NCBI GenBank assembly: GCA_040757335.1
Contig: JBFLXB010000002.1
Span: 1-36,380 of the forward strand
Direction of reading: 5' to 3'
Origin: Nitrospirota bacterium
GTDB lineage: Bacteria; Nitrospirota; Nitrospiria; 2-01-FULL-66-17
DNA: 36,380 bases
A program made the translations under genes and the position numbers. Position 1 is the stretch's first letter. Each line of letters begins with the position of its first letter. Shown in pieces: positions 1,767-23,491 of the stretch. The notes beneath the pieces are model-generated. The model was not told the DNA's origin and made no database searches. It saw only the letters and a list, made by a program, of their open reading frames with translations.

Positions 1767-2657
1767 GTGCTGGTGGGGATCGCCTTCGCCGGGGTTCTCG
1801 TCGTCCCGAGCTCTGGGGCGCGGCCCGCTGAGCGGGAAGACGGTCGCCTGCAGGAGCTGATCGGCGCCCGGATTCAGGCGCTCGGACGCTACGACGTCCA
1901 GCGGCAGACGGTCCTGCTTCAACGCGGGAGCGACATCATCCGGACCGCGAGCCTGTTCGATGCCGGCCGCGACGCGCGCCTGCAGGAGACGCTGGGCCAA
2001 TCGATCGCCGGATCCGCTCGTTCACTCTTCGTCGAGCGCGCGGCGCTCGATGCCGCCCTCGCCGACGCCCGCGACACGGAGCGCCGTCTGCGGAGCGGCG
2101 GGTGGTTTCAGGAGCACCTGGGGAGTCTGATCGTCCAGACCGCCGCGTCGGTCCCGCCAGACCATCCGCGCTTCTTGGAGCGGCTTGAGTCCCGGATCAA
2201 GGTGCTGGCTGCGATCGAGCACCGTGTGGCGCGGGACACCGACGCGCGCGTGGCCGTACTCAGCGCCCGCCAGGCGCAATATCCCCGCGATAAGCTCGCA
2301 CGCCTGGCCGCGGCCGTCGAAGACGGCCATCGCGCGGCGCGCATGTTCGACGCGTCGCACGACGCGTGGGCCGAGCGCCGCATGGGCGAGATTCAGGAAG
2401 GGCTGGCCTTCTGGCGCGCGGGCGAGGACTACCAGCGCCTCGTCGAGGCCGTCAAATCCACCCTCCGTCCCTATGCCTACGAATGGGGTGCGGGCGGCTT
2501 CTGGGAATACGGCGCCGCGTCGTTGATCGGAATCCTCATCGCAATGGCGTGGGTCGGCGCGACCACGCCGGCGGAACTTCGGCGGCGCGCAGACGTGCGG
2601 ACCTTGGGAGGTATCTCCAGAGCGCCGTTGTCACGGCACTGGAAAGGAGAGGGCGCC
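1767..2657 (+). CDS. Membrane-anchored helical protein of unknown function, open in frame into the downstream dehydrogenase
   Basis: From the GTG at 1767 this frame encodes 297 residues with no stop before the ATG of the alcohol dehydrogenase homologue at 2658; the same frame continues to 3872 as a 701-residue protein. The N-terminus is a short hydrophobic stretch (VGIAFAGVLVV). Residues ~25-240 are strongly helical and rich in Arg, Ala, Glu and Gln, with coiled-coil-like spacing. A membrane segment follows (ASLIGILIAMAWVGATTP, about residues 250-267), then a ~25-residue basic linker. If fused, the topology would put a helical domain outside the membrane and the dehydrogenase homologue in the cytoplasm. 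Alternatively the upstream gene has lost its stop codon and the downstream gene is still translated from its own ribosome site. I do not recognise the helical domain. Confidence 0.45.
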
Positions 2658-3879: not shown

Positions 3880-4389
3880 TCAGCGCCGTGTCGCCATCAA
3901 CGCCTGGAGCGCGGCCAAAATCTCCGATGGCCGCGGGGGGCAACCGGGGATCTTCACGTCCACTGGGACGTGCCGGTCGACCGGTCCGGTGACCGCGTAG
4001 CTGCCTTTGAACGCGCCGCAGTCGATCGCGCAGTCGCCCAGCGCGATGACGATCTTGGGATCGGGCGTGGACTTGTACGCGTCCTTCAGGGCGCGCTCCA
4101 TGTTGCACGTGACCGGGCCAGTCACCACCAATGCATCCGCGTGGCGGGGCGAGGCCGCGATGTGAACGCCGAACCGCTCGATGTCGTAGATCGGATTGGC
4201 GAGCGCGTTCATTTCCATTTCGCACGCGTTGCACGACCCGGTATCGACCTCGCGGATCGTGAGCGAGCGCCGGAACAACGCCGCCTTCTCCGCGGTCTCG
4301 GGAGTCACCTGAGGCGTCGGAGCCGCCGAATCAGGATAGTGTCCCGTGACCACGCCGGTCTTGAGGCTCTTTCTGATGATTCGAAACAT
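3880..4389 (-). CDS. hyfI: Ehr/hydrogenase-4-like small subunit (HyfI/NuoB-like, [4Fe-4S])
   Basis: 169 residues starting at the ATG at 4389, preceded by AAGGAG at the right distance; a longer frame from 4425 lacks such a site. The protein is homologous to NuoB/HycG/HyfI, the subunit carrying the iron-sulfur cluster next to the quinone or NiFe site. Visible signatures are GSCNACEME (C53, C56), GPVTC (C95), GDCAIDC (C120, C124) and PGCPPRP (C150). Enough cysteines are kept to hold a cubane cluster. It is the last gene of the seven-gene operon, after a 173-bp spacer with a GC-rich palindromic repeat. It would pass electrons between an external donor such as ferredoxin and the cysteine-less large subunit. 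Confidence 0.85.
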   Translation of the reverse strand: MFRIIRKSLKTGVVTGHYPDSAAPTPQVTPETAEKAALFRRSLTIREVDTGSCNACEMEMNALANPIYDIERFGVHIAASPRHADALVVTGPVTCNMERALKDAYKSTPDPKIVIALGDCAIDCGAFKGSYAVTGPVDRHVPVDVKIPGCPPRPSEILAALQALMATRR

Positions 4390-4426
4390 GGGTTCTCCTT
4401 GTAGGGTGTTCGGGAACCACCCCATG

Positions 4427-4520
4427 AATCCCTCCCCCCTTGCGGGGGAGGGCAGGGTGGGGGGGCGCCCTGCGCACCGACGCCCCCCATCCCATCCTTC
4501 CCCCGCAAGGGGGGAAGGGG
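4427..4520. repeat. GC-rich palindromic intergenic repeat
   Basis: Two C/G-rich hairpins (CCCTCCCC...GGGGGAGGG near 4430-4452 and CCTTCCCCCGCAAGG...GAAGG near 4495-4518) are themselves inverted copies of each other around GGGGCGCCCTGCGC. The unit sits between the large- and small-subunit genes of the Ehr operon. It resembles the REP-like palindromes scattered between genes in many GC-rich bacteria. It may stabilise or process the upstream mRNA; that is inferred. Confidence 0.65.
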
Positions 4521-4562
4521 AGTGCTGAGCACCGTCACACGTCGAATGTTTTTTTCATTCCT

Positions 4563-6155
4563 TCACAGATCCGTCCCCGCGTACGACAAGTTAAAGCTCT
4601 TGTTGATCAGCGGGAAGTCCGGGATGATGTTGCCGAGCACTGCGAATTGGATCGCGGGCCAGTTCACGAACGAGGGGTCGCGGACCTTGCAGCGGTGGAT
4701 GGTCCCGCCTTTGCCGGCCATCAGGTAGTACAGGATTTCCCCCCGCCAGCCTTCCACAGCGCCGAGCGCCCAGAGGCCAGCTTCGGGTGCGCTCAAGGCT
4801 GGAACCCGAACGGCCCCGTCCGGAATGCGCTCACGGACCTGCCGGATGAGGCTGATCGACTCCTTGACCTCTTCGATCCGTATGCGCACCCGCGCTCGCA
4901 CGTCGCCGTAGTTGAAGACCGGCACCCGCAAAGCCAGATCAGCATACGCGGCGAACGGGTGATCGCGTCGTACGTCGCGGTCGATGTTGGACGCACGGCC
5001 CACCACACCCATGACCCCGTGGTCCCAGGCAGTCCGCTCGGATAGTACCCCGGTGCTCTCGAGCCGGTCGGTCAGTGAGGCGTTGTCGAATATGATCGAC
5101 GCCAAATCTCCAAAATCCCGACCGATCGAGTCCACTTCACGGGCGGTCTCGTCCATCTGCGTCCGGCTGACGTCGATCGCGGTGCCGCCCACCACGTTGA
5201 CGCCGCGCAGGAACCGGCTGCCGGTCAGCCGGTCTGCGAGCTGCATGATCCGCTCCTTCATCCGACTCGCGTGCGCCAACGCCAACGCGTAGGCCGCGTC
5301 GTTGCAGATCGCGCCCACGTCCCCGATGTGGTTATGCATCCGTTCCAACTCCAGAAACAGCGTGCGCAGATACCGCGCACGAGGCGGGACCGTGATTCCC
5401 ATCAGGCGCTCCGCGGCCTCGCAGTATGCCAGACTGTGGCCGAACGACGTGTCCCCCGAGACCTTTTCCGCGAGCGAGACGCCGTCCACCAGCGGCCGGT
5501 TCTCGAAGAGTTTCTCCACGCCCCGGTGTTTCCAGAAATGGCGCAGCTCGAGTTGCATCACGGGTTCGCCCGCGACCGAGAATCGGAAATGTCCGGGTTC
5601 GATGATGCCGGCGTGGATAGGGCCCACCGGGACCTCGAATACGCCCTCGCCTTCGATGTGCCGGAAACGGTATTCGCCCTGCTGCCGTCCCATGACGTGA
5701 TCCCAAGCGAAGTCCTTTTTGAGCGGGTGGGTGCCCTTGGGCCAGTGCTCGTGGCGGACCAGCCGACGCAGGTCGGGATGGCCCTCCGGAATCAACCCGA
5801 ACAGGTCGCGAATTTCCCGCTCGTACCATTTGGCCGCGTGAATGCGTGGGGTGATCGATGGGTAGACGCGGTCGCTGTCGGGAAGGTCGATCGCGACGAT
5901 CAACCAGGCGCCCCGCCCGGGAAGCGAAAACAAATAGTAGATCCGAAAGCAAGGCTCCATCGGTCGGAGGTCCACGGCCCACTGCAACGAAAGGGTGCCG
6001 CTCAGGCCGGTCGCGCTGTGGACATAGAGCGCGATGGCCACAAGGTCAGCTTTGGCCACGCTGACCACGGGAATGTCGAGAACCCGGCTTAGGCCCGCGA
6101 TCTTGTGTTGAAAAACATCGACGAGTTTTTCCACCGCCGCGTCCGCGTCAGTCAC
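4563..6155 (-). CDS. hyfG: Ehr large subunit: NuoC-NuoD/HycE fusion lacking all NiFe ligands
   Basis: 530 residues. Residues 1-165 are a NuoC/30-kDa-type domain (WYEREIRDLFGLIPEGHPDL at ~110-129, then HPLKKDF). Residues ~175-530 are the NuoD/hydrogenase large-subunit domain (VGPIHAGIIEPGHFRF, WKHRGVEKLFE). In HycE the first NiFe motif is RVCGICGFAHS; here the equivalent is KVSGDTSFGHS (231-241), without cysteine. The second CxxC motif at the C-terminus is replaced by INKSFNLSYAGTDL, also without cysteine. The protein therefore cannot bind a NiFe centre and belongs to the energy-converting hydrogenase-related (Ehr) group, in which the site probably handles quinone or another electron partner. 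The start is GTG at 6155, three bases after the preceding stop, with a GAGG/GAAGG ribosome site. Confidence 0.88.
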   Translation of the reverse strand: MTDADAAVEKLVDVFQHKIAGLSRVLDIPVVSVAKADLVAIALYVHSATGLSGTLSLQWAVDLRPMEPCFRIYYLFSLPGRGAWLIVAIDLPDSDRVYPSITPRIHAAKWYEREIRDLFGLIPEGHPDLRRLVRHEHWPKGTHPLKKDFAWDHVMGRQQGEYRFRHIEGEGVFEVPVGPIHAGIIEPGHFRFSVAGEPVMQLELRHFWKHRGVEKLFENRPLVDGVSLAEKVSGDTSFGHSLAYCEAAERLMGITVPPRARYLRTLFLELERMHNHIGDVGAICNDAAYALALAHASRMKERIMQLADRLTGSRFLRGVNVVGGTAIDVSRTQMDETAREVDSIGRDFGDLASIIFDNASLTDRLESTGVLSERTAWDHGVMGVVGRASNIDRDVRRDHPFAAYADLALRVPVFNYGDVRARVRIRIEEVKESISLIRQVRERIPDGAVRVPALSAPEAGLWALGAVEGWRGEILYYLMAGKGGTIHRCKVRDPSFVNWPAIQFAVLGNIIPDFPLINKSFNLSYAGTDL

Positions 6156-6158
6156 CCT

Positions 6159-7688
6159 TCACCTCACCGTGATGATGTCGACTGCCATTCCCATCAAGTC
6201 CCTCAGAGGCCGGGGAATCGCCACACCCAACACCATGAGGGCGCCGATGCCGAGCCCTAAGGGAATGTGGCTCACCCCGAGTTTCTCGCCTCGTGAGACG
6301 CCTTCGGGGGGATCCCCCCAGACCATCCCCGCCACCCGGTAGAACAATCCTCCGAACACCACGACGGCAATCACCGTGAACGCGAAGACGAGTACGAGGT
6401 TGCGGGCTTCATCGGCGATCATGATGGTCAGAAAACGACCGAGATGGATCGTGTCAGCGGCATACCCGCGCGTCGCGAGAGCCGCCAGGATCGAGAATTC
6501 GCTGACGAACATGGACAGCGGCGGCATCCCGACCAGCGCGAGGGCGGCGACCAAGAGAGCGGTCGCGGTCCAGGGCTGAGCCTTGAGCAGCCCGCGGACT
6601 CCGTCGATATCCCGCGTCCCGAATCGCATGTGGATATTCCCTGCGGCAAAGAATGCGAGGGACTTGGAAAAGGCGTGGTTGATGAGATGGAACAGGGCCC
6701 CGAACGTCCCCACTCCGCTGGCTCCGAACCCGATCGCCGCGATACCCATGTGCTCGATGCTGGAATACGCGAACAAGCGTTTATAGTCGCGCTGCACCAA
6801 GATAAACAGCGCGGACACCACGAAGGAGAGGAGACCGAAGGTGATCAGGAGATTGCCCGCGTATTCCGGGGAGACGACGGCATCGACCACGACCTTGCTC
6901 CTGAGGACGGCGTAAAACGCGACGGTCTCCAGAACGCCGGCCAACATCGCTGTGACCGGCGCTGGCGCCTCTCCGTAGGCTTCGGGAACCCAGGTGTGCA
7001 TGGGAACCAGGCCGATCTTGGTTCCGTAGCCGACCAGGATGAACACGAACGCCAACTTGACGACGTATGGATCGAGTCGGCCGGCGACCGCCAACAATTC
7101 GGTGATGTTGAGCGCCGCGCTGACGTCTCCCAAAGCCCGGACCGAGGACGAGTACATCAAGACGGTTCCGAACAAGGCCAGGGCGATCCCCACCGAGCAG
7201 AGGATCAGGTACTTCCATCCGGCTTCGAGCGAGGCCTTGCGTCCGAAAAAGTTGATCAGAAACGTGGTCGCCAGGGTGGTGGCCTCGATCGCCACCCAGA
7301 GAATGCCGAGGCTGTTGGCCAGGGTGGCCAAGATCATGGCAAACATAAAGAGATGAAAGAGCGAGAAATACCGCCTCATCAGGTGAGGGGTAATGGTTCC
7401 CTCAGCCAGGTGATGATCGAAGTACCTCCAGGCGTAGAGCGAGGAGGTGAATCCGATCGTGGTAATGACGAGGAGCACGATGCTGGCCAGCGCGTCCACG
7501 TGCACCAGGTCATCGTAGGCGAGGAAGGATCCCACGCGCAGAACGCGCGACATCAACAGGGCTTGAGCGCCTCCCAGGAACGTCATCGCGGCAAAATTGA
7601 TCGTGTACAACGATTTCGGGGTTCGAAGTCCCAGGCTGAGGAGACTCGCTCCGAGGGGGATGGTCAGGAGCAGTGTCACGGCGATCAT
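6159..7688 (-). CDS. hyfF: Ehr antiporter-like membrane subunit (second HyfF-like copy)
   Basis: 509 residues, almost entirely transmembrane. It belongs to the NuoL/M/N-Mrp antiporter superfamily that forms the ion channels of complex I and group 4 hydrogenases. Family signatures include YGTKIGLVPMHTWVPEAYGEAPAPVTAMLAG, of which the AMLAG end is clear, then LFAYSSIEHMGIAAIGFG and HLINHAFSKSLAFFAAG. It is paralogous to the preceding gene, and the two are linked by an ATGA overlap (7685-7688). One of the pair may fill the place of HyfD in hydrogenase-4. It would translocate protons or Na+ across the cytoplasmic membrane. Confidence 0.85.
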   Translation of the reverse strand: MIAVTLLLTIPLGASLLSLGLRTPKSLYTINFAAMTFLGGAQALLMSRVLRVGSFLAYDDLVHVDALASIVLLVITTIGFTSSLYAWRYFDHHLAEGTITPHLMRRYFSLFHLFMFAMILATLANSLGILWVAIEATTLATTFLINFFGRKASLEAGWKYLILCSVGIALALFGTVLMYSSSVRALGDVSAALNITELLAVAGRLDPYVVKLAFVFILVGYGTKIGLVPMHTWVPEAYGEAPAPVTAMLAGVLETVAFYAVLRSKVVVDAVVSPEYAGNLLITFGLLSFVVSALFILVQRDYKRLFAYSSIEHMGIAAIGFGASGVGTFGALFHLINHAFSKSLAFFAAGNIHMRFGTRDIDGVRGLLKAQPWTATALLVAALALVGMPPLSMFVSEFSILAALATRGYAADTIHLGRFLTIMIADEARNLVLVFAFTVIAVVVFGGLFYRVAGMVWGDPPEGVSRGEKLGVSHIPLGLGIGALMVLGVAIPRPLRDLMGMAVDIITVR

Positions 7689-9181
7689 GGGATCTCCACC
7701 GCGACGTCTGCGCCAAACAACGCGATCATGGGAATGAACAGTTCGCGCAGAAAATCGGGCATGGAAAACCCGAGTGAGCCGAGCGCTATGATGTTGACGA
7801 TCAAGGCCGAGGTGGTGAAACGCCGAGTCGGAACGCTCACGCGTTGGCCGTCGTCGTGCGGCTCCCCCAGGATCATGGGCAATACCTGGGCCAGCAGCGT
7901 GGCGAAGGCCAGCGCGAGGAGTCCTAAGAGAACGGCTGCGAGCCAGGGACGCTGTTGATACGCGGCGGTCACGATCAACACCTCACTGATGAACAGGCCG
8001 AACGGCGGCATGCCGGCGAGGGCGATGGTGGCCACCAGCATACCACCCCCGGTGGCCGGCTCATGTCTGAGGAGGCCAGTAACTCGTTCTGTCACCTTGT
8101 GTCCGTGCCGCAGCAAGACCAAGCCCGCGGCGTAAAACGCGGTGGACTTCGCGAGAGCGTGGTTGAGCATGTGGAAGAAGCCGCCGAACACGCCGGCCGG
8201 TCCCCCGACGCCGAATCCGACCAGGGCGATTCCCACGTGTTCGATGCTCGAGTACGCGAAGAGCCGCTTGTAATCGCGCTGGATCAGCATGAAGACCGCG
8301 GAGACGGCGATCGATAAAAGGCCGAGCCCGATGACGATTGGCGCTGTGAAGTCCGCGCCGGCTGCCTGATCCACGATGTTCTTCAGCCGCAGCACCGCAT
8401 ACAGGGCGATGTTCAACATGAGGCCGGATAGCATGGCGCTCATTGGCGTGGGCGCTTCGGCGTGCGCATCAGGCAGCCAGGTGTGCATGGGCGCCACACC
8501 GGCTTTGGTCCCGTACCCGATCAACACAAAGACGAAAGCCAGCTTGAGGGTGGTCGGATCCAATGCAGGCGCGACCAAGCGGAGCGCACTCCAGCTCAAG
8601 GCTTCCATGCTTACGCCCAATACGCGTTCCGACGCATAGTACACCAGCACTGTGCCGAACAATGCGAGTGCGATGCCAATGAAGCTCAAAATGATGTATT
8701 TCCATCCCGCCTCCAAGGCGGCTTTGGTTCGCTCAAAGCCCACGAGGAGCGCCGCGGCAAGCGTGGAGCCCTCGACCGCGATCCACATGAGAGCGATGTT
8801 GTCGAGGGTAGTGGCCAACAACATCGCACCGAGGTACAGGTTCAATAAGAAAAAGAAGAACCGGTACCGAGTCTGCTCCAGGTGGCCGCGCGCGAGTTCC
8901 TCACCCATGTACCCCAGGGCATAGATCAGCCCGGTCCCGCCCACGGTCGCCAGCATGAGGATCATGAAGGCAGCGAGCGCATCGGCACGCAGGAGGTGTC
9001 CAACCACGGCGTCGTCCCCGGAAGCGACATGCCCGACGATGAGCCCCATCGCGACCAGGAGAACGACCACGAGCGCGCCTTGAAGCCATTCCATCGCTCG
9101 TTTGGTGCGGGTGGTGAGGCTCAACAGGCCTGCAAAGAGCGGAGCCAGCGTGAGAACAGCCAGGGAGGCGCCCGGACTCAT
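7685..9181 (-). CDS. hyfF: Ehr antiporter-like membrane subunit (first HyfF-like copy)
   Basis: 498 residues, polytopic, of the same NuoL/M/N-type proton-translocating family. Motifs include YGTKAGVAPMHTWLPDAHAE, LFAYSSIEHVGIALVGFG and FHMLNHALAKSTAFYAAG. A nearly identical arrangement occurs in the next gene, so the two probably arose by tandem duplication. It starts with ATG at 9181, overlapping the stop of the HyfE-like gene by four bases. With HyfB it gives this complex three antiporter-like subunits, implying up to three ion paths. Confidence 0.87.
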   Translation of the reverse strand: MSPGASLAVLTLAPLFAGLLSLTTRTKRAMEWLQGALVVVLLVAMGLIVGHVASGDDAVVGHLLRADALAAFMILMLATVGGTGLIYALGYMGEELARGHLEQTRYRFFFFLLNLYLGAMLLATTLDNIALMWIAVEGSTLAAALLVGFERTKAALEAGWKYIILSFIGIALALFGTVLVYYASERVLGVSMEALSWSALRLVAPALDPTTLKLAFVFVLIGYGTKAGVAPMHTWLPDAHAEAPTPMSAMLSGLMLNIALYAVLRLKNIVDQAAGADFTAPIVIGLGLLSIAVSAVFMLIQRDYKRLFAYSSIEHVGIALVGFGVGGPAGVFGGFFHMLNHALAKSTAFYAAGLVLLRHGHKVTERVTGLLRHEPATGGGMLVATIALAGMPPFGLFISEVLIVTAAYQQRPWLAAVLLGLLALAFATLLAQVLPMILGEPHDDGQRVSVPTRRFTTSALIVNIIALGSLGFSMPDFLRELFIPMIALFGADVAVEIP

Positions 9182-9861
9182 TCCTTCAACCCGGTGAGCT
9201 TGCTCACATCCACGCTGTCAAAGGCGTCTTGGAGCCGATGGGTGTAGATGCCGATGATGAGGCCGGCCACCAGCACGTCGAAGAACACGCCGAGCTCCAC
9301 GATCAACGGCATCCCGTACGCGGCCGCGGCTGCTCCCAGGAACAGACCGTTCTCGACCATCAAGAACCCCACGACCTGCGTGACGGCTTTTTTCCGCGCG
9401 ATCATGGTGAAGAACCCGATCAGCACGATTGCAAGCGCAATGGCCAAGGAATCTTTGGTGAGAAGAAATCCGATGCTGGCCACGGGTTCGGTGACCGAAA
9501 AGGCCAGGATGACCAGGGCGCCGCAAATCAGGAGAGAGGGAGGAATATTGATCACAAAGGCTACTTCCCGCTGGACGTTCAGTCGCTCAATGACCCGCTT
9601 CAAGATCAAGGGGATGATCACGGCTTTGATCAGAATCGTGAGCCCTGCGGCGACGTAGATGTGATGGATGCCGGTTAAGAACGCCACGAGAGCCGCCGTC
9701 ACCGCCAGAAAGACGGACTGGACCGCGAAGAGATCCACGCACGCGGAGAGCCGACGTTGCGCCACGATGGCGAACGAGGTGACCAACAACATCATGGAGC
9801 ACAGGTTCACCAACTGGGAACCCAGGTCCGCGGGCACCATCGCCGGGGTGATCCCGGTCAT
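9178..9861 (-). CDS. hyfE: Ehr HyfE-like membrane subunit (NuoK-related)
   Basis: 227 residues from the ATG at 9861, which overlaps the stop of the HyfC-like gene by four bases. A longer frame upstream is out of keeping with the family and lies inside the HyfC gene. The protein has about seven hydrophobic helices. The C-terminal half (FLMVENGLFLGAAAAAYG, ELGVFFDVLVAGLIIG) is the HyfE/NuoK-like part that helps transmit conformational energy in complex I-type machines. The tight overlaps on both sides place it firmly in the operon. Confidence 0.85.
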   Translation of the reverse strand: MTGITPAMVPADLGSQLVNLCSMMLLVTSFAIVAQRRLSACVDLFAVQSVFLAVTAALVAFLTGIHHIYVAAGLTILIKAVIIPLILKRVIERLNVQREVAFVINIPPSLLICGALVILAFSVTEPVASIGFLLTKDSLAIALAIVLIGFFTMIARKKAVTQVVGFLMVENGLFLGAAAAAYGMPLIVELGVFFDVLVAGLIIGIYTHRLQDAFDSVDVSKLTGLKE

Positions 9862-10835
9862 GGTGTCCCCCGCAGGATGTAGAAGAACACCAGAGCTAGC
9901 AGTGACAGGATGAACGCGACCCCCAGCAGGTCCGTCACGCGAAACAGCCTGAGCTTGGCGAACATAGACTCGATCACGCCCACGAGGACGGCGAGCCCTG
10001 AAATCTTGATCAACCACACGCCCAGCCCGACGGCCAGAGCGGCTGGGTGCGCCGCGATAGCGATCCCCCACGGGGCGAAGATGTTGCTCAAGAGAGTCAG
10101 TATCAGGAGCAGCTTCATGGCGGAGGCCCACTCGACCAGGGCCAGGTATCGCCCCGAATATTCCAGCACCATGGCCTCGTGGATCATAGTGAGCTCCAGG
10201 TGCGTGGCGGGGTTGTCCACGGGCACGCGGCCGGTCTCAGCCAAGGCCACGATGAACAGGGCCGCCAAGGCCATGAGATGGGGCGGGGGATCGGTGACGA
10301 TGCCCTGGAGCAAAGCCGTGTTGTGCACGATCGTGCTCATGTTGGTGGAGCCCGCGGTGAGGCCCACCGCAAAAATGGAGAGCATCATGGCGGGTTCGGT
10401 CAACGAGAACACGATGGCCTCGCGGCTGCTTCCCATGCCGCCGAAGGCCGAGCCCGCGTCCAGCCCCGCGAGCATGAGAAAAAACGTGCCCACGGTCAGC
10501 AACGAGACGATGGTGATGACATCGCCCGCAAAACTCAGCGGGACGCGCGAGAGGAAAATGGGCACCAAGACACTGGCCGCAAGCGTGGAGGCAAACAGGA
10601 CATACGGCGTTGCCGTGAAGATCCATGACGTCGTGGTCGAGACCACTACGCCCCTCTTGAACAGCTTGGCCAGATCCGAGTACGGCTGCAACAGGTTCGC
10701 CCCGCGCCGGCACTGCAGCCGCGCCTTGACCTTGCGGATCAGCCCGACGACGAATGGCGAGACGCCAAGAATGATAGCGGTCTGAAGGAGGGCGATGCCC
10801 GCTGATTGGAGCATCGTCATTAGGAGCCTGTCCAT
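9858..10835 (-). CDS. hyfC: Ehr HyfC/NuoH-like membrane anchor subunit
   Basis: 325 residues. Homologous to NuoH/HycD/HyfC, the helical subunit that joins the peripheral arm to the membrane arm. Features are a first helix followed by the cytoplasmic loop RKVKARLQCRRGANLLQPYSD (start of that loop at ~35) with KLFKRG, and later ETGRVPVDNPATHLELTMIHE, whose acidic residues line the quinone/ion channel. The start is uncertain. The ATG at 10835 lies inside the terminal arm of a hairpin repeat and has no clear ribosome site; ATGs at 10820 and 10814 are alternatives. Confidence 0.86.
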   Translation of the reverse strand: MDRLLMTMLQSAGIALLQTAIILGVSPFVVGLIRKVKARLQCRRGANLLQPYSDLAKLFKRGVVVSTTTSWIFTATPYVLFASTLAASVLVPIFLSRVPLSFAGDVITIVSLLTVGTFFLMLAGLDAGSAFGGMGSSREAIVFSLTEPAMMLSIFAVGLTAGSTNMSTIVHNTALLQGIVTDPPPHLMALAALFIVALAETGRVPVDNPATHLELTMIHEAMVLEYSGRYLALVEWASAMKLLLILTLLSNIFAPWGIAIAAHPAALAVGLGVWLIKISGLAVLVGVIESMFAKLRLFRVTDLLGVAFILSLLALVFFYILRGTP

Positions 10836-10949
10836 GAAGGGCCATCTGCGGCGTTGCCGCTTGCGCTCCGGTCCTCACGTACGCACCCAGTACGCTGCGG
10901 TCCGGTGCTCAGCGGCGCCTTGCATCTGGCCCGTTCCTGAACAGGCTCC
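10823..10949. repeat. Long hairpin repeat, copy 1
   Basis: A 127-nt element bounded by perfect 9-bp inverted ends (GGAGCCTGT at 10823-10831, ACAGGCTCC at 10941-10949). The internal sequence can fold back on itself almost throughout, with a GTACGCACCCAGTAC tip. The core (10840-10930) is about 87/91 identical to copy 2 at 17426-17545. It fills the gap between the HyfB-like and HyfC-like genes and includes the first codons of the annotated HyfC start. Confidence 0.9.
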
Positions 10950-10968
10950 GCTTTCGCAGTGAGAACCC

Positions 10969-13017
10969 TTACCCGACCCATAGCAGCAACGCCAGCAACG
11001 TCAGAAAAATGTACGCAAGATACAAATGCAGACTTCCCGCCTGCACCACGCGGAGCCGGTTGGCCACCATGTTGAACACCCACACCACGGGGTCGTAGAG
11101 ATATCGTTGAAACGTCGGCTCGATGTGCACCTCGAACCGCATCCGTCTGGCGAAATACCTGGATTCCTCCAGCATGTCTTTCTCGATCTTCACAGTTGGG
11201 CGGTAGATCGTGCTGAAGACCTGACGAATCGGCTGCGCGAAGCCGGTGGCCGTGTATTCCATGCTCGGCTTGAGATTGATGCCGCATCCCCACGTCTTAT
11301 AAAAGCGTCGTTTCAGTTTTCCCGCGAAGAGGAACACCCCTAGGAGCGTTGCGGGGATGATCACCGCGAGCAGGATTGTCAGCACCGGGGTGGAAATGCT
11401 GGCGAACCCGACCCCCATGGGCATGAGCGCCCACCCCCCTTCCGTGACCACGCTCTGCGCGAGCTGGGCGCCGGTGAATGGCGCGATTACGCGATCGAGG
11501 ACCGGCACCACCAGCATGGGTGCCAGTCCGAGCGCCACGCATACAGTGGCGAGCGTGCCCATCCCGACGAGCATGGGTAGGGGCGCCTCCTTGGCGTTTT
11601 TGGCGTGGTGGCTGCGCGGCATGGCCAAGAACGCGACCCCGAATGCCTTGGCAAAACAGGCCACCGCCAAGGCCCCGGTCAGCGCCAGCATGGCCGCGCC
11701 GATCGGAATCAAGATCTTCATCAAGAGGTCGGGGAGCATGAAGCTGAGAAAGAGACTCTGGAAGGTCAGCCATTCGCTGACAAAACCGTTGGTGGGGGGG
11801 AGCGCCGAGATCGAGATCGACCCCACCAGAAAGAAGAATGCGGTCCACGGCATGGCGCGGATCAGTCCGCCGTATTCCTCCATGTTTCTGGTGTGGGTCG
11901 CGTAGAGCAACGACCCGGCTCCCATGAACAGGAGTCCCTTGAACATGGCGTGGTTCATGGTGTGGTATAGCCCGGCGAGCAGGCCGAGCGCGGCGAGATG
12001 CGACAGGCCGTACGATTGAAAGATCATGCCCGCGCCGATCCCCAGCAGAATGATGCCGATATTCTCCACGCTGTGATAGGCGAGCAGGCTCTTGAGGTCG
12101 TGTTCCATCAACGCGTACATGACTCCCAATAGTGCGGACACGGCTCCGATGGCCAACACGGCAAAGCCCCACCACCAGGGGAACGCGCCGCCGAGAAAGT
12201 CGAAATACACCCTGATCAGACCGTAGATCGCCGTCTTGATCATGACGCCGGACATCAGGGCCGAAATGTGCGATGGGGCTGCGGGGTGAGCGTAGGGCAA
12301 CCACACGTGCAAGGGAACGATGCCGGCTTTGGCGCCGAACCCGATGAACGCCGCCACGAAGGCGATGGTTCGGAAGCCTTCGGGGAGGGCGTGGCCCGAC
12401 TGGCGAAATGTGTCAAACGTGAAACTGCCGGTCTGTTGATAGAAGACCAGATAGGCGATGAGGATGAATGCGGTGCCCACATGGGTCATCACCAGATAAA
12501 AGAAACCCGCGTACCTGGTTTCCGCCTTCTCGTGTTCGGTGACCACCAGCAAGTACGAGACGAGGGACATGACTTCCCACACGATGAGGAAGAAGAAGGC
12601 GTCGTCCGCAGTCACCACCAGGATCATCGAGAGCAGAAAGCCGTGGTACAGGGCGCCCAAGGCGCCGATCGAGTGGCGTTCGTAGAACTCGCGGACGTAC
12701 CCCAGCGCGTAGATCGATGCCGCGACACCCGAGAGAGAGATGACGAACACGAAGAAGGCGGACAGGGGGTCCAGACGGAGCTGGATGGTGAGCAGCGGAA
12801 TGGTCGATGGAAGCGAGAAGACGAGGGGTTCGGGAGCCAGTAAGCCGCCGATCCCGACGAGCACGCCCGCCGCGCACGCCACGATCGCGGAGCCGTGGGC
12901 CAGCCGGTTCTTGGCCTCGTCCCTCCAGGGCGCGATGAGGGGGACCAGCGCGCCGGCGACATGCGCGGTCATGAGGCTGAACAGGGCTGGAGGAACGATT
13001 ACCGCCGGATCAAACAC
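10969..13017 (-). CDS. hyfB: Ehr HyfB/NuoL-like proton-translocating subunit
   Basis: 682 residues and the first gene of the operon. A polytopic NuoL-type antiporter subunit: IGFGAKAGIVPLHVWLPYAH, LLAYHSVENIGIILLGIG and HTMNHAMFKGLLFMGAGS are all present. The C-terminal ~110 residues form the cytoplasmic extension typical of HyfB/HycC (FYKTWGCG, then a final membrane helix LYLAYIFLTLLALLLWVG). The start is GTG at 13017 with a weak GGAA ribosome site. It would carry ions as the distal pump module. It is separated from the HyfC gene by 133 bp filled by a hairpin repeat. Confidence 0.88.
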   Translation of the reverse strand: MFDPAVIVPPALFSLMTAHVAGALVPLIAPWRDEAKNRLAHGSAIVACAAGVLVGIGGLLAPEPLVFSLPSTIPLLTIQLRLDPLSAFFVFVISLSGVAASIYALGYVREFYERHSIGALGALYHGFLLSMILVVTADDAFFFLIVWEVMSLVSYLLVVTEHEKAETRYAGFFYLVMTHVGTAFILIAYLVFYQQTGSFTFDTFRQSGHALPEGFRTIAFVAAFIGFGAKAGIVPLHVWLPYAHPAAPSHISALMSGVMIKTAIYGLIRVYFDFLGGAFPWWWGFAVLAIGAVSALLGVMYALMEHDLKSLLAYHSVENIGIILLGIGAGMIFQSYGLSHLAALGLLAGLYHTMNHAMFKGLLFMGAGSLLYATHTRNMEEYGGLIRAMPWTAFFFLVGSISISALPPTNGFVSEWLTFQSLFLSFMLPDLLMKILIPIGAAMLALTGALAVACFAKAFGVAFLAMPRSHHAKNAKEAPLPMLVGMGTLATVCVALGLAPMLVVPVLDRVIAPFTGAQLAQSVVTEGGWALMPMGVGFASISTPVLTILLAVIIPATLLGVFLFAGKLKRRFYKTWGCGINLKPSMEYTATGFAQPIRQVFSTIYRPTVKIEKDMLEESRYFARRMRFEVHIEPTFQRYLYDPVVWVFNMVANRLRVVQAGSLHLYLAYIFLTLLALLLWVG

Positions 13018-13057
13018 GCGGATTCCACGCGGTGCGGCTCACTGTCTCGAATCCTCG

Positions 13058-13131
13058 ATGATGCGATGACGTTGCCCGGGCGAGTTCGCGACGCGAGTCG
13101 CATCATAGGCCAAAGCTCGGTGCGAATACAA
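13058..13131 (-). promoter_or_regulatory. Possible promoter and inverted repeat upstream of the Ehr operon
   Basis: On the minus strand TATGAT (13102-13107) lies 18 bp from a poor -35 match TTGTAT (13126-13131). A 9-bp inverted repeat, ATGATGCGA (13058-13066) with TCGCATCAT (13098-13106), overlaps the -10 element. It could be an operator or an mRNA stem. The gap to the upstream oxidoreductase operon is only 147 bp, so read-through from that operon is also possible. Confidence 0.25.
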
Positions 13132-13164
13132 TGGCCGGCAATTAGGGGCGTCGTAAGAGGGGGA

Positions 13165-13791
13165 TCAGGATCGTGAACCCGGTTGAGACTTCGATCGTTT
13201 TGTAGGCGAGACCTTGAGCCGCTTGACGGTGTCGGCCAATTGCCGGATCGTCGAGGCGGTGAGGTCGCGGATGGTCAGATTGGCCTCTTCATCGCCGTGG
13301 AACGTGCAGAGCGCAATGGTGTAACAATTGGTTCCACCCCGGATGATCTTCAGCGCGATGTTGGCTTGGTGGCAGTGCACCCCGACGAACACACAGACGT
13401 CAATGCGGTTGTACCAGATCGTCAAATTCGGATGGTTCGGGTTGATCTCTCGGTCCGGATGAATTTTGGGGTATTTAGGTCGGTAGTCGGCCATGGGAAT
13501 CACGTGTGCGGGGATGGCTTCGGCGAGCTCCTTCACGGCCGTCGCTTCTTCCGCCGCCCGGTCGCACCACCGCCAGAGCACCAGGGGACCCGGAAAGATC
13601 GTGGGATTTTTGGCCTCCAGCAGTCGGCGGGCCGCAATCTCCATCCCTTCGGCGACCGGAACGGGTCGTCCTTCAACGAGGACCTCTCCCTCGTCGGGCG
13701 TCATGACGCCCAGCATCGCAGCCGCCGGGGGAAGGAATGCTTCGGGGCCGGGAAGGACGCGGTACGTGGGCATTCTTCGGGCGTCTTGCAT
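13165..13791 (-). CDS. OFOR accessory subunit, CO-dehydrogenase-beta/CdhB-like (short paralogue)
   Basis: 208 residues from the ATG at 13791, chosen because GGAGGA lies just upstream; a TTG seven codons earlier is less likely. The protein contains NPTIFPGPLVLWRW, ADYRPKYPKIHPD, NHPNLTIWYNRIDVCVF, a VHCH motif and KIIRGGTNCYTIALC. It is clearly paralogous to the product of 16659-17405. The FPGPLxLW segment recalls the CO dehydrogenase beta/acetyl-CoA synthase epsilon family (PF02552-like), a nucleotide-binding fold without its own CxxC clusters. From memory, five-subunit 2-oxoacid:ferredoxin oxidoreductases of Hydrogenobacter and Nitrospira carry two such extra subunits. The assignment is by context and motif, not by a search. 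Confidence 0.65.
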   Translation of the reverse strand: MQDARRMPTYRVLPGPEAFLPPAAAMLGVMTPDEGEVLVEGRPVPVAEGMEIAARRLLEAKNPTIFPGPLVLWRWCDRAAEEATAVKELAEAIPAHVIPMADYRPKYPKIHPDREINPNHPNLTIWYNRIDVCVFVGVHCHQANIALKIIRGGTNCYTIALCTFHGDEEANLTIRDLTASTIRQLADTVKRLKVSPTKRSKSQPGSRS

Positions 13792-13808
13792 ATCGGTTTC
13801 CTCCTTGT

Positions 13809-14624
13809 TCAACGCCAGACAATCTGATGTTTATCCAAGATGCCTTCGATGATAGATTCGTGCTCCCACCGCTGACGTCGCGGGTTGCTCGCTCCGGTGA
13901 GGTCGTCCGGCGGCCGCTCCGTTTCGTACAGCACGCCCACGGGCATTGCGTTGGGAGTGAAGGCGGTCCCGATCGCGGCGATCAATCCGCCATCGGATTC
14001 CGCCGGCGCTTCACTCACCGCGGCGCCCTGGTCCACCCGATGAAACGTCGGACACGGCGACAGAATGTTCACGACTGAAAAACCACGGTGCCGGAGCGCA
14101 CGGCCGATGAGGACACTCGTTCTCTCGATCTCCCACGCTACGGACTGGGCCACGAAGGTGCCGCCCGCCGCGAGTACCAAGGAGAGCACATTCAACGGGT
14201 GTCGGCCGTTCTGGTTACTCGTCGCCGAAGGCTGGCCACCCGTCATGCCGTACGACAGGTTGTCGAGAATCAGATAGGTCAGATCATAGTTTCTTCGGGC
14301 CGCGTGGAGCAGGTGCGTGAGGCCGATTGATCCCGTGTCGCCGTCTCCGGCCACGACAATGACGGAAAGCCGTGGATTAGCGGCTTTGACTCCGATCGCC
14401 AGGGGAAGCACCCGTCCGTGCACGCCGTGAAGACCGTAAGCGTTGAGGTGAAAGCTGACCAGGCTTGCGCATCCCATGCCGGTCACCACGACCGTGTCGG
14501 ACGGCGCGACTCCCTCGCGTTGGAGCGCGCTGACCAGTGCGTCGAACGCCTGGCGGTGGCCGCAGCCCGGGCACCAGGTGAGGCCGCTTGGGGCGGCGGG
14601 CGACGTCGCAGCGACCGGAGTCAC
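13809..14624 (-). CDS. korB: 2-oxoacid:ferredoxin oxidoreductase, beta subunit
   Basis: 271 residues from the GTG at 14624, which overlaps the alpha-subunit stop (GTGA) and follows an AGAGGA ribosome site; an upstream GTG at 14657 is possible but less well placed. The beta subunit binds thiamine diphosphate and a [4Fe-4S] cluster. TWCPGCGHRQ provides cluster cysteines, GDGDTGSIG to LDNLSYGMTGGQPS is the ThDP/Mg motif, and C in LSPCPTFH is the expected distal ligand. With the fused gamma-alpha subunit it would interconvert a 2-oxoacid plus CoA and an acyl-CoA plus CO2, using ferredoxin. Whether the substrate is pyruvate or 2-oxoglutarate cannot be decided from this sequence alone. Confidence 0.9.
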   Translation of the reverse strand: MTPVAATSPAAPSGLTWCPGCGHRQAFDALVSALQREGVAPSDTVVVTGMGCASLVSFHLNAYGLHGVHGRVLPLAIGVKAANPRLSVIVVAGDGDTGSIGLTHLLHAARRNYDLTYLILDNLSYGMTGGQPSATSNQNGRHPLNVLSLVLAAGGTFVAQSVAWEIERTSVLIGRALRHRGFSVVNILSPCPTFHRVDQGAAVSEAPAESDGGLIAAIGTAFTPNAMPVGVLYETERPPDDLTGASNPRRQRWEHESIIEGILDKHQIVWR

Positions 14625-16387
14625 CGGGTCAAATCCTCTTTGCCGAAAATGTCCCACACCGAGATGGGCTCGCCGCGAGTGAGCGTGAGACGTTTCGGAC
14701 GGATAGGGGTGGTGGCGCCGATCAAGTGAGCCAGATGGCCTTGGTGGTTCGCTTCGACCACTACGATCTGTTCGACGGATTCGGCGAACCGCGAAAGGGC
14801 ATTGACGGGCGGCGGCCAGAGCATCTTCGGATACAGGGCCGCGATCGGCATTCCCAAACGCTCGAAACGCGCAACCGCCTCGCGCACAGCGCCTTGCGTG
14901 ATGCCCCAGCTCACGAGCCCAACAGGCGTCGATTCCGGCCCTTCGCGCTCGACCATCTCGAATTCGGCTCCGCGCAGCTTGGCGAAGCGTCGGGCCATCA
15001 TGACCTTATGAACGTCGCCGGCGTCCGTTGGCCGGCCCGTGTCGTCGTGCTCCAACCCGGTCGCCACGTATGCTCCACCCTCGGACCCCGGAAGGGCCAT
15101 GGGCGCGATGCCATCGTCGGTCGCCGCATACCGGTGGTACGGAGCGTCGGCGGTGTGAGCCGCATCGCGTTCGATCAGCGGGATCGACGTGAGATCGGGT
15201 CGAGGGATGGTCTGCATGCGCCTGGCCAGCGACGCGTCGGTGAGCAGGAGCACCGGGGTCTGGTAGCGCTCGGCGAGATTGAACGCCTCCACGGTGAGGG
15301 AGAAACAATCGCGGACATCAGCGGCGGCGAGCACGATCTTGGGCACGTCGCCGTGGCTGCCGAAGACCGCCGACAGAAGGTCGGCCTGCTCGTGCTTGGT
15401 GGGCAGGCCGGCGCTCGGCCCGCCGCGCTGCACCACCGCCACCACCACCGGAACTTCGGCCATCGCCGAAAACCCGATCATCTCCTGCATCAGGTCGAGT
15501 CCCGGACCTGACGTGCCGGTCATGGCCTTGGTCCCGGCAAACGAAGCGCCGATCGCGACGCCCAGGGAGGCGATGGGGTCCTCGGCTTCGTGAACCCGTC
15601 CGCCGACCAGCGGCAAGTGTCTGGCGAGCCAGGTGCCGAGCGACGTCGCAGGCGTAATCGGATAGGACGAATAAAGGCGACATCCCGCGGCGAGCGCGCC
15701 CAACCCGATGGCGTCGTTGCCGGTCAACAGCAGCGTCTGGTCCCGTGAGGCGCCGACCGGAGCCAACACGGGGTCGCGTTTGATCAGGTGTTGTTCTGCG
15801 TACGAGAGGCCTGCTTCGAGCGCCCGCAGGTTGACAGCGATCGTGTCGGGGCCTTTCGAGGCGAAGTGCTCGCACACCGCGCCCTCCAAGTTCGATCGCG
15901 AGAGGCCAATGAGTTCGATCAAGGCGGCAAGGGCCACGAGGTTTCGGGTCACCGCCTGTCCGCTGTGTTGAGCGATCTCCGCCATGGGGACGGGATAGGA
16001 AATGATGCGATTGCTGTGAGTCACCACGTCACTCAGGGCGTCGTAAATGTCGTAAATAAGGATGCCGTCGTCACGTATGACGTCCCGGTGGGCGAGGTAG
16101 GCGTCGGCATTGAACGCGACAAGGACATCGACTCCGTCTCCCTCGGTGCACAGCGGATGCGGGGCCATTCGGACCTGGGAGGCGACTAGGCCGCCGCGGA
16201 TCTCGCTCGGGAACGTGGTGTCGGAGAGCACTTCTAGGCCGCTGAGCGCAGCGGTGCGCGCAAGGAGCGCGCCGGCCGTGACAATCCCGTCCCCGCCGGC
16301 GCCGACGACGCGAATCGCGAGGCTTTCGTCCCGATACCGTCGGTTCAGGGGTGCGGCCAAGTCGAGCGGACTCGTTGTGGTCTCCAT
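14621..16387 (-). CDS. korA: 2-oxoacid:ferredoxin oxidoreductase, fused gamma-alpha subunit
   Basis: 588 residues in one chain. Residues ~24-195 are the gamma domain (VVGAGGDGIVTAGALLAR, FPSEIRGGLVASQVR). Residues ~215-588 are the alpha domain (YSSYPITPATSLGTWLA, EDPIASLGVAIGASFAG, MTGTSGPGLDLMQEMIGF, QRGGPSAGLPTKHEQADLL). The fused order gamma-alpha is that of KorA-type enzymes, whereas the Hydrogenobacter five-subunit enzymes keep gamma separate as far as I recall. The alpha domain binds CoA and the 2-oxoacid. The ATG at 16387 abuts the stop of the small TPR gene, suggesting coupling. It is the core of the 13165-17405 operon. Confidence 0.92.
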   Translation of the reverse strand: METTTSPLDLAAPLNRRYRDESLAIRVVGAGGDGIVTAGALLARTAALSGLEVLSDTTFPSEIRGGLVASQVRMAPHPLCTEGDGVDVLVAFNADAYLAHRDVIRDDGILIYDIYDALSDVVTHSNRIISYPVPMAEIAQHSGQAVTRNLVALAALIELIGLSRSNLEGAVCEHFASKGPDTIAVNLRALEAGLSYAEQHLIKRDPVLAPVGASRDQTLLLTGNDAIGLGALAAGCRLYSSYPITPATSLGTWLARHLPLVGGRVHEAEDPIASLGVAIGASFAGTKAMTGTSGPGLDLMQEMIGFSAMAEVPVVVAVVQRGGPSAGLPTKHEQADLLSAVFGSHGDVPKIVLAAADVRDCFSLTVEAFNLAERYQTPVLLLTDASLARRMQTIPRPDLTSIPLIERDAAHTADAPYHRYAATDDGIAPMALPGSEGGAYVATGLEHDDTGRPTDAGDVHKVMMARRFAKLRGAEFEMVEREGPESTPVGLVSWGITQGAVREAVARFERLGMPIAALYPKMLWPPPVNALSRFAESVEQIVVVEANHQGHLAHLIGATTPIRPKRLTLTRGEPISVWDIFGKEDLTR

Positions 16388-16645
16388 CTAGGAACGGGGA
16401 TGTTGTGCCTCGGCTTGGGCGAGCGCCTCTCGCGCACGAAGGTGGTTGGGCTGAAGGCGGAGCACCTCTCGTAACTCGGCAAGTGCATCCGCAGTCCGCC
16501 CGATTTCGAGGAGAAAGAGGCCGAATTTCAGGCGAAGATCCACATCAAGGGGATTCGCCGCCAAGTGACGCCGAAAGTAGTTGATGAGCCACTCGGCCTG
16601 TTCACGCTCGCTCGCGAGGTCGCGTCGACGGTGACGATGGTCCAC
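16388..16645 (-). CDS. Small TPR-type protein inside the OFOR operon
   Basis: 85 residues if started at the GTG at 16645, 13 bp after the preceding stop with GGGA upstream; a TTG at 16690 would add 15 residues that overlap the previous gene. The segment NPLDVDLRLKFGLFLLEIGRTADAL, of which GLFLLEIGRTADALAELR is the clearest part, followed by LRLQPNHLRAREALAQAE, has the spacing of one and a half to two tetratricopeptide repeats. The protein is soluble, without a signal peptide or cofactor motif. It lies between an accessory-subunit gene and the catalytic alpha gene, with a stop-start junction on the alpha side. It may therefore act in assembly or as a small structural subunit. Function is inferred only. 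Confidence 0.6.
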   Translation of the reverse strand: MDHRHRRRDLASEREQAEWLINYFRRHLAANPLDVDLRLKFGLFLLEIGRTADALAELREVLRLQPNHLRAREALAQAEAQHPRS

Positions 16646-16658
16646 CAGAGATCCCGCG

Positions 16659-17405
16659 CTACTCGGCGTGCTCGTCGAGACCAACTTCAAGTTCGTGCCC
16701 GAGTTCCTTCATGTAAGCCATCATCTGCTTTCTCGCCTCCACCTTGTGCCGCTTGCGCGCTGCGAGTTCGGCTTTTCCGGCCTCGGTCAGCGCCCAGGGG
16801 ACGATCTTTCCACCGGTACGCAACGCGACGATCGCGTCGCGGAGCTTCGCGAGTTTCTTCAGATCAACCCATCCCAAGCTGGCGATGGCGTCTTCGTGGG
16901 TATCGTTGGCGCAGATCGCGATCGTGTAGCAGTTGGTTCCCCCTCGGATAATCTTCATCATGACATTGACGAAGTGACAGTGAGCGTCCATGAACAGGCC
17001 TACTTCGATCTTGTTGTGCCAGATCGTCAGGTTGGGGTGACAGGGATTGATCACGGCCTCGGGATCAATCTTGGGATAAATCGGGCGATAGTCGGGCATG
17101 GGGATAATATTGATTCCGGGGATGTGCCCGACCAACTCGAGCGCGGCGGCCGCACGTACCCGCGTCGCTTCGTTCCATCCCCACAACAACAGGGGCCCGG
17201 GGAAGAACGTGGGATTACGTCCCGTGAGCAATTTTTCCGCGATACGCGGAATCAGCTCCTCCTCCGGCACGACGTTGCCTTCCAGCCACCCTTCGCCCGG
17301 GATTGGGAATCGCGTCGCCAAAGAAGCCGCGGCCGGTGGAAGCAGCTCACCTGGTCCGGGTTGAATTGGGCCTCTGCGTTTTTGGGGGGCACGCTGAGTG
17401 GACAT
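16659..17405 (-). CDS. OFOR accessory subunit, CO-dehydrogenase-beta/CdhB-like (long paralogue)
   Basis: 248 residues from the ATG at 17405, with AAGGAG 8 bp upstream. First gene of the OFOR operon. It shares NPTFFPGPLLLWGW, MPDYRPIYPKIDPE, HPNLTIWHNKIEVGLF, AHCH and KIIRGGTNCYTIAIC with the 208-residue protein at the other end of the operon. It adds a ~50-residue basic helical tail (KAELAARKRHKVEARKQM and on). The pair probably forms a pseudo-symmetric delta/epsilon module on the oxidoreductase. No CxxC pairs occur, so a classical 2x[4Fe-4S] delta subunit is absent from this operon. The annotation rests on motif similarity to the CdhB-type family and on context. Confidence 0.68.
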   Translation of the reverse strand: MSTQRAPQKRRGPIQPGPGELLPPAAASLATRFPIPGEGWLEGNVVPEEELIPRIAEKLLTGRNPTFFPGPLLLWGWNEATRVRAAAALELVGHIPGINIIPMPDYRPIYPKIDPEAVINPCHPNLTIWHNKIEVGLFMDAHCHFVNVMMKIIRGGTNCYTIAICANDTHEDAIASLGWVDLKKLAKLRDAIVALRTGGKIVPWALTEAGKAELAARKRHKVEARKQMMAYMKELGHELEVGLDEHAE

Positions 17406-17630: not shown

Positions 17631-17647
17631 TTGCACCGAGCATGCCA
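17631..17647 (-). promoter_or_regulatory. Sigma-54 (RpoN) promoter for the OFOR operon
   Basis: The minus strand reads TGGCATGCTCGGTGCAA. This matches the -24/-12 consensus TGGCAYR-N4-TTGCW at every position but one (GTGCA for TTGCW), with the invariant GG and GC at the correct spacing. Transcription would start near 17620 and give a ~215-nt leader containing hairpin repeat copy 2. The divergent gene pair encodes an NtrC-type sigma-54 activator and its kinase, which makes this the natural target. Confidence 0.7.
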
Positions 17648-17736: not shown

Positions 17737-17745
17737 TGTTATAAT
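17737..17745 (+). promoter_or_regulatory. Extended -10 promoter for the two-component operon
   Basis: TGT-TATAAT: a perfect TATAAT (17740-17745) preceded by TG one base upstream. No good -35 box is present at 17-18 bp, as is common for extended -10 promoters. The start site would fall near 17752, which places the ATG at 17744 upstream of the transcript and favours the ATG at 17768 as the kinase start. Confidence 0.6.
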
Positions 17746-17767
17746 GCGCCACCGCTATGTCGGTGTG

Positions 17768-22844: not shown

Positions 22845-22881
22845 CGCTGCGTTCAGGCGCGTGACGAGCAGAGGAGACGCG

Positions 22882-23337: not shown

Positions 23338-23350
23338 ATCGGGGGAGCCC
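23320..23350 (+). terminator. Strong hairpin at the end of the cytochrome gene
   Basis: GGGCTCCCC (23320-23328) pairs with GGGGAGCCC (23342-23350) around the stop codon, and the second arm leads directly into hairpin repeat copy 3. No T-run follows, so it may protect or process RNA rather than terminate transcription. Confidence 0.35.
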
Positions 23351-23466: not shown

Positions 23467-23491
23467 CGGCTCCCGCCGAGTGGGGAAAATA

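What the first reader, a model, noticed from the sequence alone, without database searches (positions are those of the whole stretch)
3880..17405. A contiguous OFOR plus cysteine-less Ehr module: a candidate ferredoxin-linked ion pump for CO2 fixation or 2-oxoacid oxidation
Twelve co-directional genes encode a full 2-oxoacid:ferredoxin oxidoreductase and, 147 bp downstream, a seven-subunit hydrogenase-4/complex I-like machine. The machine's large subunit has no NiFe cysteines. There is no hydrogenase maturation gene, formate dehydrogenase or NADH-binding module in the cluster. Ferredoxin is the obvious shared carrier. The pair could oxidise 2-oxoacids to pump ions, or use the ion gradient to push electrons to ferredoxin for reductive carboxylation. 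Individual families are known; their tight pairing as one unit is the point of interest.
Basis: partly seen in the sequence, partly recalled or inferred. Interest (0 to 1): 0.8.

Follow-up and report, generated by a model that had tools for sequence, protein, structure and literature searches.

The report
Ehr proton-pump-like complex paired with OFOR
In an uncultured relative of Nitrospira, the genes for a proton-pump-like complex of unknown function (Ehr) sit directly behind those for a CO2-handling 2-oxoacid:ferredoxin oxidoreductase, and comparison of related genomes suggests the two are functional partners, which would give the widespread 'mystery' Ehr complex a testable role in carbon fixation.

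Summary
In detail: twelve minus-strand genes (3880-17405) encode an intact KorAB-type 2-oxoacid:acceptor oxidoreductase and, 147 bp downstream, a seven-subunit Ehr complex without NiFe cysteines. The host is an uncultured class Nitrospiria bacterium with ATP-citrate-lyase-like genes and a separate five-subunit OGOR.

Beyond the finding: (1) the OFOR carries two delta subunits (CODH/ACS-epsilon fold) of the POR and OGOR types of rTCA five-subunit OFORs. (2) The pairing is real but narrow. This KorA type occurs in 4 of 270 Nitrospiria genomes, always beside Ehr. A sister lineage in another class has KorAB beside Ehr in divergent orientation (3 genomes). (3) Most Ehr loci (40 of 55 examined) have no delta subunit upstream. 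Nine others keep the deltas plus a KorA relative that has lost its thiamine-diphosphate domain. (4) The ferredoxin claim is not supported by anatomy: the HyfH/NuoI-type 2[4Fe-4S] domain found in Ehr of many other phyla is deleted here, leaving only its N-terminal helix on HyfI, and the complex I quinone tyrosine is absent.

Best reading: an OFOR-delta module is the redox partner of a PMF-coupled Ehr, perhaps by direct docking; direction unproven. Ehr in Nitrospira was known, function unknown; I found no description of the OFOR link.

The parts
16659..17405 (-). delta1: OGOR-delta-type subunit (CODH/ACS-epsilon-like, PF02552)
   Evidence: sits in the tree with OGOR delta subunits
16388..16690 (-). 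small TPR protein; start uncertain; homologue at the same place in G001 (54%)
14621..16387 (-). KorA: fused gamma-alpha subunit of 2-oxoacid:acceptor oxidoreductase, active-site motifs intact
13809..14657 (-). KorB: beta subunit, thiamine diphosphate motif GDGD and four [4Fe-4S] cysteines; start uncertain
13165..13788 (-). delta2: POR-delta-type subunit (CODH/ACS-epsilon-like), member of an Ehr-linked clade
10969..13017 (-). HyfB-like antiporter subunit (NF005086, 767 bits)
9858..10835 (-). HyfC / NuoH-like membrane subunit
9178..9861 (-). HyfE-like membrane subunit (start at ATG 9861)
7685..9181 (-). HyfF-like antiporter subunit, first copy
6159..7688 (-). HyfF-like antiporter subunit, second copy
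4563..6155 (-). HyfG/EhrL: NuoC-NuoD fusion, both NiFe CxxC motifs absent
3880..4389 (-). HyfI/EhrS: NuoB-like one-cluster subunit with a HyfH-derived N-terminal helix; ferredoxin domain deleted
17632..17647 (-). possible sigma-54 promoter element upstream of delta1 (9 of 11 consensus bases)
   Evidence: weak on its own
17744..19138 (+). divergent PAS histidine kinase, homologues beside Ehr in many Nitrospiria
19135..20493 (+). NtrC-type (sigma-54) response regulator, partner of the kinase

Best explanation
The locus is a two-part redox module. The OFOR part (KorA-KorB plus POR-delta- and OGOR-delta-type subunits) interconverts a 2-oxoacid and its acyl-CoA with CO2. The Ehr part is a complex I/hydrogenase-4-like membrane machine that moves ions when electrons pass. 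The OFOR module is the redox partner of this Ehr. Electrons run between the KorB [4Fe-4S] cluster and the single cluster of HyfI, either by docking through the delta subunits or through a small carrier encoded elsewhere. In this rTCA-type host I think PMF-driven supply of low-potential electrons for reductive carboxylation is likelier than 2-oxoacid oxidation. Shown: gene content, intact motifs, recurrent linkage, loss of the ferredoxin domain. Inferred: physical or electronic contact, docking through delta, ion pumping, direction.
For: Adjacency recurs: all 4 of 270 Nitrospiria genomes with this KorA type have it beside Ehr, in two families. Three genomes of another class have the sister KorAB 0.4-0.5 kb from hyfB in divergent orientation. 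15 of 19 genomes with the clade have Ehr. The Ehr-linked delta2 proteins form one clade (18 of 19 rows, support 100/99) distinct from POR delta. KorA and KorB motifs are intact. All three antiporter-like subunits keep the GxGxK lysine and a C-terminal-half SE motif. HyfI lost the HyfH ferredoxin domain, so another redox partner is needed. Delta has the fold of archaeal CODH epsilon; in a published CODH structure an added reductase sits where the alpha and epsilon subunits meet (PMC11493965). Host has ATP-citrate-lyase-like genes and a five-subunit OGOR.
Against: Of 55 Ehr loci with at least 3 kb upstream, 40 have no delta subunit upstream, so Ehr does not need the linkage. Nine have a KorA relative without the thiamine domain and no KorB, so 2-oxoacid catalysis is not the conserved part. 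Loss of the HyfH domain also occurs in Ehr clades without any OFOR nearby. In family f23 (8 genomes) KorAB and Ehr are both present but no linkage was seen in the loci read. A 147-bp gap allows a separate Ehr promoter. A complex I-like cluster with four antiporter subunits, the type proposed in the literature for ferredoxin reduction, is also in the genome. No expression or biochemical data.
Confidence: 0.45

Rival explanations
1. Neighbours in one regulon only: OFOR and Ehr are both under the adjacent kinase/NtrC regulator but exchange no electrons; OFOR uses soluble ferredoxin and Ehr serves something else.
For: Kinase/regulator pair found in 27 of 55 Ehr loci with enough sequence; best sigma-54-like sites lie before delta1; 147-bp gap before HyfB; unlinked KorAB and Ehr in family f23.
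Against: Adjacency in two orientations and two classes; a dedicated Ehr-linked delta2 clade.
Confidence: 0.25
2. The delta pair, not OFOR catalysis, is the real Ehr partner: KorA (and its thiamine-less relatives) is a scaffold or docking subunit, and the active KorAB here is an ancestral or lineage-specific state.
For: Nine Ehr loci keep delta1-KorA relative-delta2 with the thiamine domain and KorB lost; family f5 loci have delta with only a KorA remnant or none.
Against: KorA and KorB motifs are intact in all four module genomes apart from a changed PSAGLPTK stretch in family f6.
Confidence: 0.2
3. Oxidative direction: 2-oxoacids are oxidised, electrons pass through Ehr to an unknown acceptor and ions are exported, as in ferredoxin-oxidising Mbh or Fpo-like systems.
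For: Two-subunit KorAB enzymes can run either way (general knowledge); three antiporter-like subunits.
Against: Host carries ATP-citrate-lyase-like genes and a five-subunit OGOR; delta subunits otherwise occur in the anabolic five-subunit OFORs (PMC10052474).
Confidence: 0.1

Closest known systems
Ehr (Ech hydrogenase-related) complex of Nitrospira, e.g. N. moscoviensis (L137)
   Same: Same subunits, mostly 52-77% identity, no NiFe cysteines, kinase/regulator pair nearby; about half of Nitrospirales genomes have Ehr, function unknown (PMC12342949)
   Different: N. moscoviensis has no OFOR or delta gene beside it and one HyfF instead of two
Two-subunit KorAB OGOR (Magnetococcus OGOR, PDB 6n2n)
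   Same: Domain order, thiamine motif, four KorB cysteines; 493 and 155 bits
   Different: Flanked by two delta-type subunits and followed by Ehr
Five-subunit POR/OGOR of Aquificaceae and Nitrospira
   Same: Delta subunits resembling CODH/ACS epsilon (PMC10052474)
   Different: Core is the fused KorAB type; no separate gamma and no ferredoxin-like epsilon subunit
2M complex I, proposed ferredoxin reducer in Nitrospira (PMC8407350, PMC6606698)
   Same: Complex I-like, extra antiporter-type subunit, proposed reverse electron flow
   Different: Has a NuoG-type soluble arm; Ehr here has only HyfG and HyfI
Proposed FDH-Ehr complex (PMC6349859)
   Same: Ehr with a proposed cytoplasmic oxidoreductase partner
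   Different: Partner there is formate dehydrogenase; here an OFOR

Membership tests
Ehr complex | Group-4-hydrogenase/complex I-like large subunit lacking the NiFe CxxC ligands | tested here: met
   HyfG has no CxxC
Ehr complex | HyfB/C/E/F membrane arm with HyfG and HyfI | tested here: met
[NiFe] hydrogenase group 4 | Two CxxC motifs ligating NiFe | tested here: not met
Ferredoxin-dependent Ech/Mbh/Fpo-type complexes | NuoI/HyfH-like 2[4Fe-4S] ferredoxin port | tested here: not met
   No C..C..C...C motif in any frame of the window; HyfI keeps only the N-terminal helix
Quinone-reducing complex I | Conserved quinone-site tyrosine of NuoD | tested here: not met
   LDYV in both NuoD of this genome, VSGD in HyfG
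Two-subunit KorAB 2-oxoacid:acceptor oxidoreductase | Fused gamma-alpha KorA with POR, POR_N and PFOR_II domains | tested here: met
Two-subunit KorAB 2-oxoacid:acceptor oxidoreductase | KorB thiamine motif and [4Fe-4S] cysteines | tested here: met
Two-subunit KorAB 2-oxoacid:acceptor oxidoreductase | Substrate and electron acceptor | not testable with these tools
   needs enzyme assay
Five-subunit rTCA OFOR | CODH/ACS-epsilon-like delta subunit | tested here: met
   PF02552, tree and fold
Five-subunit rTCA OFOR | Separate gamma and ferredoxin-like epsilon subunits | tested here: not met
   gamma fused to KorA; no ferredoxin gene

The most novel reading that the evidence does not exclude
A directly wired OFOR-Ehr supercomplex: an OFOR passes electrons straight into (or out of) a complex I-like ion pump whose ferredoxin port has been lost, with OFOR delta subunits as the docking parts, making CO2 fixation or 2-oxoacid oxidation directly PMF-coupled; the thiamine-less versions in Nitrospira are its derived, catalytically silent form.
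Probability: 0.2. Interest if true: 0.88.

Novelty: new variant of a known kind. Interest (0 to 1): 0.62.

Why it matters
Two questions are open in the literature: what Ehr does in Nitrospira and relatives (PMC12342949 says unknown), and how these aerobic rTCA autotrophs reduce the low-potential carrier their OFORs need (PMC8407350 says unknown; 2M complex I is the candidate named). A conserved link between Ehr and OFOR/delta proteins gives a concrete candidate partner for this Ehr and a second candidate for energising reductive carboxylation, both open to direct tests.

Tried and rejected
Hydrogenase or formate hydrogenlyase: rejected, no CxxC in HyfG and no Mo-enzyme or maturation gene beside it. 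NADH-linked complex I: rejected, no NuoEFG. CODH/ACS: the PF02552 hits could suggest it, but the delta subunits group with POR/OGOR delta and no CODH catalytic subunit is in the cluster. Sequence search of the delta profile against PDB found nothing; only the fold search did. Sigma-54 sites: whole-window scan gives no excess; sites before delta1 are good in some relatives, not in others, so left as suggestive. OFOR/delta next to Ehr of other phyla: searched in about 70 Ehr loci outside Nitrospiria, none found. A rough co-occurrence test of delta2 clade against Ehr in 98 genomes gave p = 3e-4 but ignores relatedness, so I do not lean on it.

Full report
Where it is. The window is the first 36 kb of contig C2 of a 3.56-Mb, 99% complete assembly. 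Its class contains a genome whose contig length and Ehr position equal those of Nitrospira moscoviensis NZ_CP011801 (G139/L266 against L137) and several 'Nitrospirae bacterium' MAGs, so the host is an uncultured member of class Nitrospiria outside the family of Nitrospira.

Observation. The twelve minus-strand genes are real and correctly placed. The first five are delta1, a TPR protein, KorA, KorB and delta2; then a 147-bp gap; then HyfB, HyfC, HyfE, two HyfF, HyfG and HyfI. KorA (POR, POR_N, PFOR_II) and KorB (thiamine domain, four cluster cysteines) match the Magnetococcus OGOR 6n2n best. HyfG has no CxxC.

Delta1 and delta2 belong to PF02552 (CODH/ACS epsilon). The same proteins occur in the five-gene POR and OGOR clusters of other Nitrospiria. 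In the literature these are the delta subunits of five-subunit OFORs, known to resemble CODH/ACS epsilon (PMC10052474). A model of delta2 (mean pLDDT 81) matches archaeal CODH epsilon best in PDB. In a tree of 46 such proteins, 18 of the 19 Ehr-linked delta2 rows form one clade (100/99) next to POR delta; delta1 rows fall with OGOR delta, in two places. So the locus has one delta of each type around a KorAB core, a mixture I did not find described.

How conserved is the pairing. This KorA type (over 1000 bits) is in 4 of 270 Nitrospiria genomes: window, G001 (same family), G022 and G025 (family f6). In all four KorAB and delta lie directly upstream of Ehr. In 396 genomes of the phylum, a sister KorA clade (577-772 bits, against at most 432 for ordinary KorA) appears in families f16, f21 and f23 outside the class. 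In f21 (three genomes of one genus) it is 0.4-0.5 kb from hyfB, transcribed the other way (in G284 a contig ends inside hyfB). In f23 (8 genomes) Ehr is present in each genome but was not found beside KorAB in the loci read; in f16 (4 genomes) Ehr is absent. The tree needs two changes of the label 'Ehr-linked', so two gains, or one gain and losses. About 70 Ehr loci outside Nitrospiria show no KorA, KorB or delta nearby.

The wider Nitrospiria pattern. Ehr is in 110 of 270 genomes. In 55 loci with at least 3 kb upstream of hyfB, 15 have delta genes within 9 kb, 4 full KorAB, 9 a KorA relative without the thiamine domain, and 27 the kinase/NtrC pair. That KorA relative keeps the gamma and PFOR_II parts and lacks the POR_N match and the motifs of the thiamine domain; its nearest relatives are the module KorAs (82-148 bits for the full-length copies) and not ordinary KorA (at most 43 bits). 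So the conserved unit is delta1 - KorA-derived protein - delta2 - Ehr, and catalysis is kept only in some lineages. N. moscoviensis has Ehr with the kinase pair and no OFOR part.

Ferredoxin. In Ehr of Acidobacteriota, Verrucomicrobiota, Firmicutes and others, HyfI is fused to, or follows, a HyfH-like 2[4Fe-4S] domain that begins like MF.ILRKS.KTG.VT; in some of these the cluster motifs are already degenerate. In Nitrospiria and some other clades the ferredoxin domain is gone and that N-terminal helix is joined straight to HyfI (window: MFRIIRKSLKTGVVTGHYPD). No C..C..C...C motif occurs in any frame of the window. The complex I quinone tyrosine (LDYV in both NuoD of this genome) reads VSGD in HyfG. 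The complex therefore has one recognisable cluster, no known ferredoxin port and no known quinone ligand; what it accepts or donates is open. Since the domain is also lost where no OFOR is near, the loss alone does not point to OFOR.

Metabolic setting. The genome has ATP-citrate-lyase-like genes with a POR delta and a flavoprotein of the SDH/FRD family on C5, a five-subunit-type OGOR on C30, a complex I-like cluster with four antiporter subunits on C3 and a true NiFe hydrogenase large subunit on C1. Only three PF00384 proteins exist, two of them in NUO clusters and one of 728 aa, so a Nitrospira-type NXR is not evident.

Mechanism. I commit to a partnership in which the OFOR module exchanges electrons with Ehr. 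Steps shown: gene content, motifs, recurrent and rearranged linkage, co-occurrence. Steps inferred: electron contact, docking through delta, ion movement, and reductive direction in an rTCA-type host. A published precedent for an epsilon-type subunit accommodating an added redox partner is the CODH of Ca. Ethanoperedens, where the zeta subunit sits at the meeting of alpha and epsilon (PMC11493965).

Known or new. Ehr in Nitrospira and its unknown function are published (PMC12342949, PMC10284858). Ferredoxin reduction in Nitrospira is described as unknown with 2M complex I as candidate (PMC8407350, PMC6606698). Nine searches of the held open-access library found no report of an OFOR-Ehr link; subscription papers and preprints are not held, so this is not proof of absence.

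Noticed in passing
L067:5279-6781, L045:3796-5247, L119:7803-9236 and relatives: KorA-derived protein of about 480-500 aa that has lost the thiamine-binding domain, kept between delta1 and delta2 in nine Nitrospira Ehr loci; some copies have a new CxCxxxC motif at the domain junction.
   Followed up: partly
window 3880-4389; L140, L152, L162, L170: HyfI has a deletion of a fused HyfH ferredoxin domain with its N-terminal helix retained; other phyla show the intact fusion and intermediate forms.
   Followed up: partly
window 6159-9181: Two HyfF copies side by side, as in families f5-f7 and some Nitrospira; most Nitrospira Ehr loci have one, a parallel to the NuoM duplication of 2M complex I.
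   Followed up: no
L067:7375-8346, L054:16657-17562: Exported-looking carboxypeptidase-regulatory-like protein of about 300-320 aa beside Ehr in 18 of 55 loci; absent from the window.
   Followed up: no
G000 C1 about 84-97 kb (L236): True NiFe hydrogenase large subunit (DPCISCATH) followed by ORFs that look like HypF and HypD, so the genome can probably use H2.
   Followed up: no
G000 C3 90000-109500 (L233): Complex I-like cluster with four antiporter-type subunits, probable 2M complex I.
   Followed up: partly
window 1767-3872 (+): Iron-containing alcohol dehydrogenase converging on HyfI; only its C-terminal part matches the family, so the first 300 aa of the ORF may not be coding as drawn. 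No homologue found near Ehr in 13 related loci.
   Followed up: partly
window 22861-25949: SoxA/TsdA-type cytochrome c (plus strand) and a molybdopterin oxidoreductase of the Oxidored_molyb family (minus strand) close together, possibly a sulfur-oxidation pair.
   Followed up: no
L149, L151, L159, L169, L176: Ehr clusters in small-genome candidate phyla (Magasanikbacteria, Daviesbacteria, Levybacteria, Staskawiczbacteria, Moraniibacteriota), with HyfI first in the operon.
   Followed up: no
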